From Ectocarpus siliculosus (taxonomy: Eukaryota > Sar > Phaeophyceae > Ectocarpales > Ectocarpaceae), in the NCBI GenBank assembly GCA_000310025.1, contig FN649759.1, positions 815,723-879,722 of the forward strand: a stretch of 64,000 nucleotides of DNA. Direction: 5' to 3'. The notes beneath the pieces were generated by a model. It saw only the letters and a list, made by a program, of their open reading frames with translations, was not told where the DNA came from and did not search any database. The translations under genes were made by a program, and so were the position numbers. Positions 14,755 to 24,657 of the stretch are shown here, piece by piece. Each line of letters starts with the position of its first letter. Position 1 is the first letter of the stretch.

Positions 14755-17700
14755 ATGCGGGCACCGACAGCAGCGGCCACGCCGCTGGTGGTGCTGCCGC
14801 TCATGCTGCCCATGACGCACGGTGTGGCTCTCTCGCGTATGTTCGCCACGAGACAAGCCAGCCTCGACCAAAGCGGACCCGCCGGCATGATTCGCGGGGT
14901 ACCGCGTGCTGCAAGGCTCGAAGCTGGCAAGAGAGAGGGCGGAAAGATATCAAGGCGCAACACAGAGAGTTTCGGTCCGCTTGCCCTCTTGGACGTATGC
15001 TACATGACGGATGATTGCACCCCTGGGTTGTATGTGGTGAGCCAACAAATTTGCTTGTTGCGCAGTGTAGTAGAGAACCAAACGCGAGAGAGCAGTAATA
15101 TTTCTACCGCTACTACTGTGGGTGCAAGGTCGAGAGTGCCAAGCCATCTTCAAGTACGTAGCGCCACTCTTGAAAGTTACAATATGTCTTGCCAGGAATG
15201 GCAGCGGCCTCGTAGTCTGGGATTCTCAAAGCATTGCAACTAACGCGTGACAGGGCACCGGTCGATCTACCGCTTCCATACCTCCATGTTCTCCTTTGAT
15301 ATTGGCGCGCTCAGTTGCGCCCGTGTATGCTTTGTGCCAGCAACTGTTCCAGTAGATGGGGCGCTGCCCTTCACCACGGCTTCCAGGATGCTTCGTCGTG
15401 CTTGCGATGCCATCCAGATCTCCTTGTCAGATTCTGCAGTGCATATTTCTCCCAAAAGAGCTTTGATCACCAGCATTGATGGCAACTGGACCTTAATTGT
15501 GATATCGCGTCGTACTTTTTTACACACACTCGCTGTCGTTTTGCTCGTGACCCCTCCGACACACGATCGACCCCGTGGATTTCAGGAAGCCGGATTTCGG
15601 ACACAATGCGAGAAAACGCCGTTTTCTGGCGGAGACACCGTTTGCTGCAAACCCTTTGCGACACCATGTGACTCGGACAAGGTAAGCTACGTTGCGTGCC
15701 CGAACGAGGCACTGAGATGCTACCGAAACACGTCTTGTTGGGCCCACCAGCGGCCCAAATCCAAAAGCGATGGTTCCAGTCATCATTTGAAAGAATGGCG
15801 AAAACCGGTGCCGGAGCCGCTTCACTACGTCGAAGACGAACAAGCGCAATCGATTCGTATTCCCTTTCCTTTTGTGTTTGCGCATCATCGGTCTCACATT
15901 AATTGATGCAACGCCTCATGCTATTGTCCCTTGCATCAGGCTTGCTGCTCCGGCAACTGTGACGCTAGCCATGCCCGGTGCGACGACGCGGTCGTTCCGG
16001 CTCACCCGACGGACGAAGAGCACTCCCACGAGGATGATTTCTACTCGGATGAGATTGCCTACTACTCGGATGAGATTGCCTACTACTCGGATGAGATTGC
16101 CTACTACTCGGATGAGATTACATCCGACACACCGAAAGACAGCTCTGGCGACATCATGGCCGATCAGCAGGACGGTGAGGGTGGTCAACTGTACGACGAT
16201 GGGGAAACTAGCTATGGCGAGTACGACGATGTCCAATATAGACATGACAAGTACGATGACAGGATCACTGGTTCCGGCCTTGATCGGTATTGGGACGGAT
16301 ATTCTGGCCGATACAGCTTTGGCCAGTACGATTACACGACCAGCTCGGAGGACACTCCACGCGCGCAAGACAATCCGTTGGCGGAAGATTCAGGCACGCG
16401 TCTCTATGAAGACCGTGTTGGGTCTCCGGACAACAACCACGATGACGAGAAGGGCACCGAATTTCCACCCCCACATGATGAAACAAGTGGAGCTTCTCCG
16501 AAAGCTGACGGTGCTCATGAAGGCGGCGAGGGCGAAGAGTCCACGACTGGCCCCCTCTCGACATCTTCGACCGAGGAGAGTTCTACCACCATCTGTCAAC
16601 CGGACTACGCCGCAGGGACAATCGAAACGATGGCATCGTCAGAAACAAGAGTCGAGGCGGTTGCTATGGACTCACAGGTAGCGTCGAAATGTCAAGTCAT
16701 GTGCTAGGGAATACGGGAGAGGTGGAAGCATGCCCCCCAGAACACCTATTGCGTCACGATTGCCCACCGGCATAATCAAACGGCAGTCGCACGTTGTTTG
16801 CAATGGTGAATTCGGTGTGCAAGATCAATGCGAAAGGGTCTTGTCTGCAGATTATGTTACACGCTTTAAGTGGCCTCGATTGGCGGCACCCGTGATATCG
16901 AGCACCATACCCAACTACTGCAGTTCTCGTCCTGTCCCCTTGTTACGGCCGACAGGGAAATGTGTTTTACTCCGTCAGCAAAGGCCAGAGTGCAGGCGAT
17001 GCTATACTGAGGGCGACGTCCTCTTCCCCCTCTAGTGTTAACACCAATGTAGACACCGACAACGATAACGATGGTGATACCGTCGTCTACGCCGGCACCG
17101 GCATAATCCTTGCAATGGCCATCGATGCCGACGACAACCTCATCTTCACCATGGAAGACGCGCCCGCCGTAAGTGGGGGGGTATTCTTGCTCTCGTGGCG
17201 GCAGATCAACCCGGGCGGCGGCGTTGGGGCCGAGGATTCCAGTGGTACCGGTGTGTCTATGTACGATTCCTTCTTCGAAATGACTTCGGAGACTGAAACC
17301 GCAGAGACTTCGGCAGTGAGCCTAGCCGCCGGTCTCGGTCCATTTTTGCCTGGCGTCGCCGTATGCCCCGTCACGGGAGACGTGTACGTCACAAGGGGTC
17401 ACACTGGAATAGCGAGGCTGGTCAAGGGAACCGACGGGAGTTTCGGCCAAAAGGTCAGATTTCCTTCGTCGTGCGCTGTGAAAACCGCTTGCCTTGGCAA
17501 GACAAGACCATATCATACTGTTTGCAAAGCACGAGCAAGGCAAGTCTCTACAGTACAACATCAACCAACGGTGAAGGCAGCGAAGCAACCTGTGGCTGTC
17601 GTTGTATGTATGTGTTCTGCTTTCCTAGGAAGTGAGGTGCGGAAGATTTTTACTGACTGAAGACGGACAGGGAAAACGTTTATTTGTACGACAGAGATGG

Positions 17701-19177
17701 AGGCAATAGCTGTCCCGCAGTTAGCTCTCTACCACGCTAGTTTGGTGCCGCGCGAAACGGGTGGTATGTTTTTTTGGCCAACGGAAAATACCTGTCGGTT
17801 TTGTCAGTGCCCACATGACTCGGCCTTGACGTCTCTTCGTTCATACCATCCCCCACCGACAAGATGGAATGGAATATGGTGGACATGGCCTTCAAGGACG
17901 GCGTGAAAACTCGAGCGCCGCTCATGGTATGGGACATCGCCGTCAATAGCATCGGCATCGTCTACTTCACAACATACGTACAGGTATGTCCCCCGCGGCC
18001 ACGAGTTTTTACGCTGCGAGAGTAACACATAGGAGACATAGACAATAGGTGTGAACTCATTAATCCTCAGGGAAACCCTAAACCCTACAGTGGTATGCAT
18101 GAAGCCTTACCGTGTACTGAAGGAAGCAACTGGTATTGGCGTCCAAACAGACACATGAACCGACAAGGTGCGTCAGAGTATTTGACGGCCAGCCCTGACT
18201 ACAGCCTGACGTCCGACACAAGGATCCCGCATCACTTTCCGCATCCCTCGCTACCCCCGCGACAGCTTCACCCCACTTGCCTCCCCTCATCCATCCTCCT
18301 CTATTCGCGAGCAGGGTGTTGTGCTGAAGGGAATATTCCCCCGGCAGGGAGGCGCCGCTCAGGTGCGCCTTGTAGGCGGCAAGTGGGACTCGGGCGTTTC
18401 AGGTTCTTCAGGGGACGGTGGGAAGGCCCTCTCGGCGGTGCTGGCCTACCCAAAGGGAATCGCGGTGGATGCTGACGACAATATCTACGTCGCCGAGTTC
18501 CAGGGAGAGAAGATCCGGAACATTTCTACTAGTGGGATTATCTCCACGTGCGTTGGCACGGGAAGCACGGTACGTGGGTAGGCTCCGCATATGTCATGGG
18601 GGGGGGCTACTGTAGGAAGTAGGGCTGTTGGCGTTGTCCGCAGCGATAATATGTGCCGTGTTTCAAACAAAGCTTGATGCATTTCAAAGACGAGAATGTT
18701 TCTGTCGAACACTTTGCGCTAACAAACCATGGGGTTTCCGTATGTAGGCGTTTGGGGGGGGGGGGAATGCATCGACAAAAAACTCAGAGAAAGGCCATCA
18801 TTTTTCACCGCTCTTCCTCGGTAAGCGTTTCCCCCGTCCTCTGTTCGGTCTTGGTTTTCCATGCAACACGGGCACGCACAACACGTAAGCGTCCAATCGC
18901 AATCATGTTCCTGTTCCTCACTGAAGCGTTCGAACTCTTGAGCAACCACACGCGTATCTCATCCCACCCGACCGTGCATTTGAACATTCGCCTATGGACA
19001 CAACTTCTATCTTCGGGCAAGGCGTATGAAGGAGATGGAGGACCGGCATCGGAAGCTGGCCTTGACTTACCCAACGCCATTGCTTTCATGCCGAGCACAC
19101 CTGGAAGCAGGATGGCAATCGCGGACTTCGGTCACAACGCCGTGCGCGTCGTCACGCCGACCTCGCTTTGTCCCTGA
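14755..19177 (+). CDS. Secreted NHL-repeat (beta-propeller) protein with cysteine-rich head, 7 exons
   Basis: Exons: 14755-15036, 15586-15681, 15940-16677, 16956-17453, 17864-17983, 18315-18569, 19022-19177, giving 714 aa. Every intron is phase 0. The start at ATG 14755 gives a signal peptide (MRAPTAAATPLVVLPLMLP). Residues about 80-145 carry ten cysteines including two CC pairs, over the junctions of exons 1-3. Residues 161-188 are four identical YSDEIAY repeats inside a long Asp/Glu/Tyr-rich, low-complexity stretch. From about residue 373 come propeller blades: ILAMAIDADDNLIFTMED, GVAVCPVTGDVYVTR, VWDIAVNSIGIVYFTTY, YPKGIAVDADDNIYVAEF, then GDGGPASEAGLDLPNAIAF, all typical of NHL repeats. 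Probably secreted or cell-surface; partner unknown. The exon 3 donor (GTAGCG) and the exact gene end are the least certain points; more blades could lie downstream. Confidence 0.8.
16042..16120 (+). repeat. 21-bp coding tandem repeat (4 copies)
   Basis: Four almost identical 21-bp units (TACTCGGATGAGATTGCC plus TAC) encode YSDEIAY repeats in exon 3 of the NHL gene. Near-identity at synonymous positions points to recent slippage or expansion. Confidence 0.95.
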
Positions 19178-21091: not shown

Positions 21092-24000
21092 CTAATCGTA
21101 CGACAAGGCTTCTCCCCTTAGGCACTTCTCGAACAGGTTGTCGACGCCGTGCTGAATAATGTCCACCAGCACCTCGAAGCCCTATAATAGCATTCGAGGA
21201 TCAACATCGGCAGTGAAGCACGCAGGGTCAGTGCATGCGCGCATCATAGGAGCGGGTTCATGCGGCATTCGCAAGGAAACGAGGGCATGGGGTGAGTCGA
21301 GAAACACACCGCTGTGTGCCCAGCATGGCCGACAAACGACGTACAGTATATCATGAGAGCTTTACCAGTGCCATTGACCTGTCGTCAACAGATGGAAGAG
21401 ATATTCTGCAAGGGGAGTAGAATGTCAGTTTTGCTTGTGTGAAACGTAGCACACATTGGCGTGATTGGGGCCCAAAACCAGCGATGAACGAAAAAGATCA
21501 TTCATTTTGAAAAATTCAAGATAGCCGAAGGTCTGGGGTCCTCCAAAAAAAGAAACGCGATTTTCTTAACCGGTACACACGCAAAAAAAATCCGCTCTAC
21601 GACCCACAGAGACGTCCGGAGATCCTGCTGTTCCACGACACCAAAACCGCTCCAAAAAAAGTCAGGGTACACGCAACACATGCAGTCAGTTACCTCGCGG
21701 CCGACGTAGTAGGGGTTCGGGATGGTCTCAACCTCGGGGTACTTTGTGCCGTACGAGAGCAACGACCTCGTCTTCTTCGCGGCGATGTCGCCCTTGCCCC
21801 AGTGCTTAGCGGCGGTCATGATCGCCTCCACGTTGTCGTCATCCTGGTGATACAACCGCGTCAGACGAAGTGGCGGCAGGTGTGCCCGGTCGAACCCACG
21901 AGGAAGGGATTCAGCGGGAGTAGGCGGGGTGCAACGGGAGTAGGAGGGGTCAGCGCCACTCTGCGTCGGTCGGTGCATGCTGCAGAGTACAACAGTACAA
22001 CACCGGGTTCAGAACAACGTGAGGCCTTCCATTGATACCTGCGAAACTTCAATCTGAGCACCCCTTCACACGCACACACACCCTTGCGCACGTATAGTCA
22101 CGAAAATCGACTTGAGGTGTACGCTAGCTCCGTTTCGTCCCTGCATGACTATAGAAGATGCAGAGGCACGGAAATTTTCTGCTACGGAACGGCTCAGCCA
22201 GTACAGAGAAACGTAGTCCTACGACCAGTACAGAAAGAGGCCGTCCTAAGCAGATTTGGCATTCGGCGTCACGTCAATCAATCACAGCATCTACCAAGAC
22301 TGCCCAAAAAAAAAAAAACCTCCAACAAACAACAACTCACAATTCCGAGGATGACGTCAAACTTGTCGAGGTCGGCGGGCGTCAAGGGCCGCGATCCCCC
22401 TCCCTTCATGTCGAGCCCCCTCGTGGTAATTCTCCTCTGTGCCGCCGTTACCTCGATGCGGGGGTCCGGCTCCTGCCCGCGGAAGAGGACTTCTCCACCT
22501 TCTTTATACCTGTACGAAAAAAAAAAAACACCTTATGATTTACCATGTCATAATAGTGAAACCGTTGGAGAAAAAAATCGTGGTGTCTACGGTCCGTAGG
22601 GGGTCGGGGCAGTCGTGTGATTGCGTGATCCGGCGGCGAGAACGTTGGTGGCAAGGGTACACAGAACGGCGAACTAATCACCATTCGCTCGCTCATGGAG
22701 CCGACCCCTAAACTGTTTCATTCACGTTGGTCACCTCGGAAAGAACGAGCTGACCGAACCACTTCGAGCTGCTCCTATATTTCAAGTGTCATGCGGTACC
22801 AGTTGAATGGTTTGAGCCAAGCAGCATGTTTTCGGGACCCCCAAGCAGGAATTGTTGGGGCCTCTTTCTGTTATGCTTGATCGTCAGAATAACGACCCGG
22901 CTCTTGCTAAACAACCCCCACAAAACAATGTCAACGTCAACATCAAGCTTGGCATGAAACTAAATACTAGAAATCACATCAAAACGTGTGTGTAGGATAC
23001 CGCGACCCTTTTCAGAGTGGAAACGGTACTAACAGGTGCTCCAGGAACACACCGTGAGGATACTTACAGGCAAGCAAATGAGTACTTTCATATGCTGCTG
23101 GAATGAAAATTCTCAACCTACGTTTCATCCATACCCATTCCCATCCATGAAGGAGAGTCATGGATAAACGGGAAAGATGCTGCTGATGTTGTTAAACACC
23201 CCGGTTGACCTCCTGTTCCTACCCGTCAAAGAGACGAGATTTTCCAAGGTGTTGTACTTACCCTTGTGAAACAACCAGTGGTGTGTAGCCCATTCGGCTA
23301 GAAAGAGGTTCGTTTTCCTCCCGATGTCGACTACATGCCCACGAAAGCCAAAGACCAGACCAGGGCACCTAGATTGGGGTTCGCTGGGCCTATGAACAGC
23401 GGACACACACCTCCAAGGCGGTGACGTTCGGCACTTGGGAACCTTGCTGGTTTCGCGGACCTCAAAAACAGTACCCCCCTGGTGCTTATCACTCACCAAT
23501 CTGCGGGGCCCCCTCCGGTCCCGCAAGAGTCCACCTCCCAGGTTTCCTCGCCCTCCTCAAACACCCCGAACTCGTCCAAGATCTTCTTGTTCAGACAGCC
23601 CTCCGCGCATGGACTGATCGGCAAGACAAGAGGCATGCCCGAGGAGGCGAAGAGGGGCAAAAAAGGATTTATATCCAACAGTCCGGATCAAAGAGCGACG
23701 AAAACCACCTCCCCGCAGTGACGAGAAAAAAAAAATGCAATGCGAAACTGTAGCGACACTCGACAAAACGTGTGAAGAAGATTGATGATGAACTAAGCCT
23801 GCGACAAGAATCAAGCTGTCGTAAACACGAGCGACGTTTAAGCACGGTGCTCCAGTAAACAGCGTCGAACGCCAGCAAGATCATGATGTGCTGGTGCCGG
23901 TGCAGGCCTACCTGGGCTTGCCAGGAGAGCCTCCATCAACACGCACACTACATATATGTATCCGCTACTAGATATACCGTGGAAGTCATCAACGTTGAAC

Positions 24001-24657
24001 ACCACCAAGTAACTACACTGTCGATGTCTGCCCATGCCAATTCGGCCAAGAGCGTCCGCGCGCGGACTCGTCAGCCTAACGGGCCCAAAAAAGGCCCTGG
24101 CTCGCTTTCGTCAGCCTCACGAGTCCAAATATCCTTGCTCACCAATATAAGCATCCCTTCTCGAAAGCAGGACACAACCGACGACAGCGGTCACACATGC
24201 TCTAACCTCTCCCTCCGCCTTCGTAGGCGCGACGGCAAAAAAAAAAAAAAAGTATCTGAGTCCACAGCCACACTTGCCCACCTGCAGATCTTCTGCCCTC
24301 CTTACGGCTCCACCAACCCCTTCCGCTTGCTGGGCGTGAAACAAGTACTAAGAACAACAAAGGCGTCGAAATTTACACGAGATGCTGAAGTTTCGTCGAC
24401 GAAACACACCGACAGCAGGGCACCGACAGCAGGGTTTCTAACCCTCTGGCCAACCCCCCGTACAAGACAAAAAGCGAGAGCACAACAAACCTTGTCATAA
24501 TGTTGTACAGGCACACGAACAATACCCTCGATATGTCCGTCCCTCCGACGCACTCCCCCGCCATCATCCTCAAGGGCTTCCACGACGACGACGACGATGA
24601 CGACGACCGCCAACATCTTGCCGCACGATCCCGTCGTCGAGCGTCGCCACCGGCCAT
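21092..24657 (-). CDS. Low-molecular-weight protein tyrosine phosphatase homologue, apparently catalytically dead, 5 exons
   Basis: Exons on the minus strand: 24657-24491, 23613-23497, 22509-22341, 21843-21694, 21181-21092 (stop TAG), giving 230 aa with all phases joining. The alternative start at 24567 gives 200 aa. The fold's landmarks appear in order: RVLFVCLYNIMTSPCAEG (P-loop region), WEVDSCGTGGGPADWYKEGG, GQEPDPRIEVTAAQRR, RPLTPADLDKFDVIL, DDDNVEAI, NPYYVGREGFEVLVDII. In active enzymes the P-loop is C-L-G-N-I-C-R-S and the general acid is the Asp of D-P-Y-Y. Here the nucleophile C49 is kept, but the Gly is Tyr, the second Cys is Met, the Arg is Thr (T55), and the general-acid Asp is Asn. 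A poly-Ser tract precedes the domain if the first ATG is used. I infer a pseudophosphatase, possibly a phosphotyrosine or partner-binding protein. Confidence 0.83.

What the first reader, a model, noticed from the sequence alone, without database searches (positions are those of the whole stretch)
21092..24657. Low-molecular-weight tyrosine phosphatase homologue lacking the catalytic Arg and general-acid Asp
The five-exon model is phase-perfect and keeps every structural landmark of the family. The P-loop, however, reads C-L-Y-N-I-M-T-S where active enzymes have C-L-G-N-I-C-R-S, and D-P-Y-Y reads N-P-Y-Y. The residue loss is seen directly; that these residues are the phosphate-binding Arg and the general acid is established for the family. 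An intact, spliced pseudophosphatase of this family would be unusual. The Arg position is completed across the exon 1/2 junction, so the splice site matters.
Basis: partly seen in the sequence, partly recalled or inferred. Interest (0 to 1): 0.78.

Follow-up and report, generated by a model that had tools for sequence, protein, structure and literature searches.

The report
Dead copy of a tyrosine phosphatase
This gene encodes a recognisable small tyrosine phosphatase fold whose catalytic arginine and acid are gone, while a normal-looking copy sits elsewhere in the genome, so it is probably a non-catalytic relative of that enzyme, though expression and function are untested.

Summary
A five-exon minus-strand gene (24567-21092) encodes a 200-residue homologue of low-molecular-weight tyrosine phosphatases (LMW-PTP) with P-loop CLYNIMTS and D-loop NPYY. 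Corrections: the start is better placed at 24567; the Arg-position codon (ACA, 24495-24493) lies wholly in exon 1 and only the next Ser is split by the intron, so moving that junction did not bring Arg back (0 of 52 in-frame open alternatives). The genome holds an orthodox copy on contig C3 (CLGNICRS, DPYY; 88 of 181 aligned residues identical) that shares introns 2-4 but lacks the P-loop intron. The 80 bacterial relatives kept (best of 586) all have CLGNICRS and PDPY. The window copy evolved far faster than the C3 copy, yet frame and splice sites are intact and 33 of 35 core hydrophobic columns stay hydrophobic. Best reading: a fast-evolving pseudophosphatase, unable to do LMW-PTP catalysis and probably a poor phosphate binder, perhaps acting by contact with other proteins such as the C3 copy. 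Expression, orthologues in other algae and function could not be tested; a silenced duplicate is not excluded. Human inactive LMW-PTP splice isoforms are known; my capped searches listed no gene-encoded one.

The parts
24491..24567 (-). Exon 1 from the preferred start MMAGE; holds Cys (24513-24511), Tyr for Gly (24507-24505), Met for Cys (24498-24496) and Thr for catalytic Arg (24495-24493)
   Evidence: donor AAG|GTTTGT
24568..24657 (-).
   Evidence: the C3 paralogue as modelled starts at the residue that aligns with 24567
23614..24490 (-). Intron 1, 877 bases, splits the Ser codon of the P-loop after its second base; absent from the C3 paralogue; no second copy found in the genome
23497..23613 (-). 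Exon 2: end of P-loop, following helix, start of the W-loop
22341..22509 (-). Exon 3; holds most of the W-loop insertion WYKEGGE shared with the paralogue, then Leu-Phe where the paralogue has Tyr-His
21694..21843 (-). Exon 4; D-loop N-P-Y-Y, Asn for general-acid Asp at 21717-21715
21092..21181 (-). Exon 5 with the C-terminal part and stop TAG

Best explanation
A duplicated LMW-PTP gene has become a pseudophosphatase. Shown: its closest relative among the 81 other proteins compared is an orthodox copy in the same genome; it keeps a full-length family match, open frame and splice sites, but has lost the P-loop Gly, second Cys and Arg, the D-loop Asp, and the W-loop aromatic and His. Inferred: it cannot carry out cysteine-based dephosphorylation and, without Arg and with a bulky Tyr in the P-loop, probably holds phosphate poorly, so it should not act as a STYX-like phosphate trap. 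Most likely mechanism (inference, untested): it acts by protein contacts through surfaces that remain (D-loop Tyr-Tyr, the W-loop insertion), pairing with or otherwise modulating the active paralogue.
For: Window protein and C3 paralogue group together (98/91 among 82 rows, the other 80 bacterial) and share three intron positions. 80 of 80 bacterial relatives have CLGNICRS and PDPY, the window protein does not; the window departs at 15 of 50 columns conserved at 85% or more, the paralogue at 2 of 50. Fold constraint: 33 of 35 core hydrophobic columns remain hydrophobic; of 23 that changed, 21 stay hydrophobic against 13.3 expected from random one-base changes, P 0.0002. Frame constraint: if 13 to 15 changes at conserved columns (14 observed) were neutral, frame and splice sites survive in 11 of 1655 simulations without indels and 1 of 1735 with 0.05 indels per substitution. 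Pairwise dN 0.448, dS 1.30. Precedent: inactive human ACP1 isoforms SV3 and LMW-PTP-C, which might regulate the active ones (PMC4322731, passage seen).
Against: No transcript or orthologue evidence. Change in the window lineage is very fast (end branch 6.63 versus 0.44; 25 window-only versus 1 paralogue-only departures in 83 consensus columns), as relaxed constraint would give. Changes at conserved columns are not concentrated in the active site (4 of 9 versus 11 of 41, Fisher p 0.42) and the mildness of 10 other changes is not significant (p 0.15). The core changed at 23 of 35 columns, no less often than the rest, 75 of 146. The W-loop aromatic (Y, W or F in 61 of 80 bacterial rows, Tyr in the paralogue) is Leu and the His (80 of 80) is Phe, which speaks against keeping substrate recognition. 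Regulation of the paralogue has no direct evidence.
Confidence: 0.57

Rival explanations
1. A duplicate that escaped constraint and is now a silent or recently dead pseudogene, still open by chance.
For: Very long branch and scattered changes at conserved columns. If only 4 conserved changes fell in a neutral phase, an intact gene survives in 92 of 395 simulations without indels, 45 of 401 with 0.05 and 32 of 394 with 0.1 indels per substitution. With 9 to 10 changes: 39 of 952, 7 of 900 and 1 of 891.
Against: The P-loop changes alone need at least 6 base changes in three codons, which argues against a very recent loss; the hydrophobic core pattern and intact splice sites argue for constraint during much of the divergence.
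Confidence: 0.27
2. The gene model is wrong and the true product has an orthodox P-loop through another junction, a micro-exon or an assembly error.
For: Intron 1 falls inside the P-loop and its donor GTTTGT differs from the GTGAGT of introns 2 and 3; no RNA evidence.
Against: The Arg-equivalent codon is wholly inside exon 1; 0 of 52 in-frame open single-intron variants give FVC-x5-R and none of 5778 micro-exon combinations gives C-x-G-N-x-x-R-S/T; 10 give FVC-x5-R followed by S, T, A or G, all by dropping YNIM and adding an unrelated stretch from 24075. Exon 1 already carries the degenerate relics of G-N-I-C.
Confidence: 0.06
3. The protein has gained a different activity or ligand, using the retained Cys or the altered pocket.
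For: The nucleophile Cys, Asn, Ile, Ser and Pro of the P-loop and the D-loop tyrosines are kept; pocket residues of three loops have changed; the rate of change is high.
Against: The Arg of C-x5-R, shared by LMW-PTP and ArsC (PMC2175518, passage), is gone; no positive evidence for a new ligand.
Confidence: 0.1

Closest known systems
Orthodox LMW-PTP paralogue, contig C3:3770973-3767815 of the same genome (L010)
   Same: 88 of 181 aligned residues identical, same start MMAGE, same W-loop insertion, same positions of introns 2-4
   Different: Has CLGNICRS, DPYY and W-loop Tyr-His; lacks intron 1; activity inferred from sequence only
Cyanobacterial LMW-PTP slr0328 (PDB 5o7b), best solved relative by sequence
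   Same: Match over residues 13-189, E 3.8e-13
   Different: Has CLGNICRS and DPYY and no W-loop insertion (alignment)
Human ACP1 isoforms SV3 and LMW-PTP-C
   Same: LMW-PTP products that seem catalytically inactive (PMC4322731, passage seen)
   Different: They arise by alternative splicing of an active gene, not from a separate gene with replaced residues
MK-STYX pseudophosphatase
   Same: Phosphatase fold with lost catalytic residues (PMC8622459, passages seen)
   Different: Dual-specificity family; it loses His-Cys and keeps Arg (FSx5R), here Cys is kept and Arg lost

Membership tests
LMW-PTP family by descent (PF01451) | Profile match above the curated cut-off over the whole domain | tested here: met
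   55.5 bits, cut-off 23.2, profile 1-144 of 144
LMW-PTP family by descent (PF01451) | Groups with an orthodox member and shares gene structure | tested here: met
   Groups with the C3 paralogue 98/91 in a tree whose other 80 rows are bacterial; introns 2-4 shared
LMW-PTP enzymes | P-loop motif CXGNXCRS (motif as given in PMC7948962, passage) | tested here: not met
   CLYNIMTS
LMW-PTP enzymes | General acid Asp of D-loop DPYY | tested here: not met
   NPYY
LMW-PTP enzymes | Aromatic residue in the W-loop (group I, PMC7948962, passage) | tested here: inconclusive
   The aligned position is Leu, Tyr in the paralogue; the insertion just before it holds Trp-Tyr, whose role is unknown
LMW-PTP enzymes | Phosphatase activity | not testable with these tools
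   needs recombinant protein
Pseudophosphatases | Phosphatase fold with catalytic residues lost | tested here: met
   fold by homology only, no structure predicted
Pseudophosphatases | Maintained, expressed and functional without catalysis | tested here: inconclusive
   indirect signs of constraint and signs against; no RNA or orthologue
STYX-type phosphate binders | P-loop Arg kept so that phosphosubstrate can be bound (this defining role is recalled; the FSx5R of MK-STYX is from PMC8622459) | tested here: not met
   Thr at the Arg position

The most novel reading that the evidence does not exclude
A separate, conserved gene family in this algal lineage encodes LMW-PTP pseudophosphatases that lack the phosphate-binding Arg and govern an active LMW-PTP by pairing with it or masking its partners.
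Probability: 0.22. Interest if true: 0.6.

Novelty: new variant of a known kind. Interest (0 to 1): 0.42.

Why it matters
Pseudophosphatases are known in the classical, dual-specificity and myotubularin families (listings and passages). A gene-encoded one in the LMW-PTP family, with an orthodox sister copy in the same genome, would give a clean pair for asking what the fold does without catalysis. My searches listed no gene-encoded LMW-PTP pseudophosphatase; several lists were capped (15 of 74 papers, 15 of 55, 5 of 2,865), and the library omits most subscription papers, so absence from print is not shown.

Tried and rejected
A micro-exon or alternative junction restoring Arg: enumerated within 24545-23570 and not found (single introns of 40 bases or more with GT or GC donors, micro-exons of 1-75 bases with GT donors). 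Intron 1 as a repeated mobile intron: one match, itself. Concentration of change in the active site as a sign of selective loss of catalysis: not significant. Viral contigs: 1 stretch matched a pattern, none encoded a relative. Literature: listings showed nothing on this gene in titles or abstract openings, and the one passage seen of PMC3174193 concerns another protein; a search on LMW-PTP dimers (8 of 561 listed) gave nothing I could use on dimers. The tree has no eukaryotes but this pair, so the age of the duplication is unknown. The PF01451 search of the genome missed the window gene itself, so further divergent copies may be missed too.

I therefore lowered the best explanation from 0.60 to 0.57 and the novel case from 0.25 to 0.22, and raised the pseudogene rival from 0.25 to 0.27 and the new-ligand rival from 0.09 to 0.10.

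Full report
What is there. On the minus strand of the window five exons (24567-24491, 23613-23497, 22509-22341, 21843-21694, 21181-21092), separated by four GT..AG introns, give one open frame of 200 residues. It matches Pfam LMWPc over the whole profile at 55.5 bits, cut-off 23.2; the best solved relative by sequence is the cyanobacterial LMW-PTP slr0328, E 3.8e-13. The P-loop reads CLYNIMTS and the D-loop NPYY. The Arg-equivalent codon is wholly inside exon 1; the intron splits the following Ser.

The reference copy. A search of the genome (189 Mb, 492 contigs) with PF01451 gave one match, over the cut-off, on contig C3; that search did not find the window gene itself. A search with the window protein gave 9 matches at E up to 10: five in the window gene, three in the same C3 gene, and one on C11 at E 1.67. 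Spliced by hand, the C3 gene has four exons and encodes 181 residues with CLGNICRS and DPYY, 114.1 bits. The two proteins are identical at 88 of 181 aligned residues and share three intron positions; the C3 gene has no intron in the P-loop. [quoted passage not shown] So the genome keeps an orthodox-looking enzyme beside the altered copy.

Is the loss real? Gly>Tyr, Cys>Met and Arg>Thr need at least 6 base changes and Asp>Asn one more, so a single wrong base cannot make this P-loop. Of 149 donors and 56 acceptors around intron 1, 52 pairs give an in-frame open product; 42 keep FVC and none gives FVC-x5-R. Of 5778 micro-exon combinations 10 give FVC-x5-R followed by S, T, A or G, all by removing YNIM and adding an unrelated stretch; none looks like C-x-G-N-x-x-R-S/T. 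Intron 1 has no second copy found in the genome.

How it compares with the family. All 80 bacterial rows have CLGNICRS and PDPY; these rows were found with a pattern containing LFVCL[G/Y]NI or WYKEGGE and are the best 80 of 586. Of 50 columns conserved at 85% or more the window protein departs at 15 and the C3 paralogue at 2. The W-loop is altered too: the aromatic (Y, W or F in 61 of 80 rows, Tyr in the paralogue) is Leu, and the His present in 80 of 80 rows is Phe. In a tree of 82 rows the two algal proteins group together, 98/91, with end branches of 6.63 and 0.44; the programme warns that long branches may be misplaced, and the tree holds no other eukaryote, but shared introns support the pairing independently. 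Among 83 majority columns, 25 departures are window-only, 1 is paralogue-only and 16 are shared.

Alive or dead? For constraint: dN 0.448 and dS 1.30 between the two by one method and 0.446 and 1.19 by another, a third method failed; 33 of 35 core hydrophobic columns outside the P-loop stay hydrophobic, and 21 of the 23 changed ones do so against 13.3 expected under random one-base change, P 0.0002; if 13 to 15 changes at the 48 conserved columns kept by the paralogue were neutral (14 observed), an intact frame with intact splice sites is left in 11 of 1655 simulations without indels, 1 of 1735 with 0.05 and 0 of 1657 with 0.1 indels per substitution. Against: changes are not concentrated in the active site (4 of 9 versus 11 of 41, p 0.42), the mildness of 10 other changes is not significant (p 0.15), the core changed as often as the rest (23 of 35 versus 75 of 146), and smaller neutral phases are tolerable: with 9 to 10 changes 39 of 952 and with 4 changes 92 of 395 simulations without indels leave an intact gene. 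Much of the divergence may also precede the catalytic loss, in which case these tests speak to the earlier period. I put a maintained pseudophosphatase at about 0.57 and a silent duplicate at about 0.27.

Mechanism. From PMC7948962 (passages): the family P-loop is CXGNXCRS; in the Vibrio enzyme the P-loop amides and the Arg guanidine hold the phosphate; the D-loop Asp is the general acid/base and a D-loop Tyr, with a W-loop aromatic in group I, holds the substrate ring. In the window protein the Arg, the Asp, the small Gly and the W-loop aromatic are lost, while the Cys, the D-loop Tyr pair and the Trp-Tyr of the insertion remain. Inference: no catalysis, poor phosphate binding, doubtful phosphotyrosine recognition, possibly retained protein contacts. 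Inactive ACP1 isoforms might regulate active ones by competing for substrate (PMC4322731, passage); myotubularin pseudophosphatases form heterodimers with active ones (PMC8622459, passage). I propose pairing with, or another contact that modulates, the C3 paralogue; no result here tests it.

Known or new. Library searches (several lists capped) showed pseudophosphatases of other families, a statement that kinetoplastids lack LMW-PTP (PMC2175518, passages), two LMW-PTPs in Entamoeba with pseudophosphatases of other make-up (PMC3827238, passages), and an oomycete phosphatome in whose text no word beginning with 'inactive' occurs (PMC10925823), but no gene-encoded LMW-PTP pseudophosphatase. It is a new variant of a known kind: a member of the LMW-PTP family by descent, not an LMW-PTP enzyme. 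The organism was not identified here.

Noticed in passing
window 23497-22341 (exons 2-3) and L010: Both algal proteins carry an 11-residue insertion (around WYKEGGE) in the W-loop, absent from all 80 bacterial rows examined.
   Followed up: partly
window 23614-24490: An 877-base intron sits in the P-loop codons of the altered copy and is absent from the orthodox paralogue; whether it was gained here or lost there is unknown.
   Followed up: partly
window 16896-18581, + strand: Open stretches with text such as YPKGIAVDADDNIYVAEFQGEKIRNIS that look like NHL-type repeats (judged by eye; the label is recalled).
   Followed up: no
L010 (C3, about 3770438-3770391): A run of about 16 CAG units lies in intron 1 of the orthodox paralogue.
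   Followed up: no
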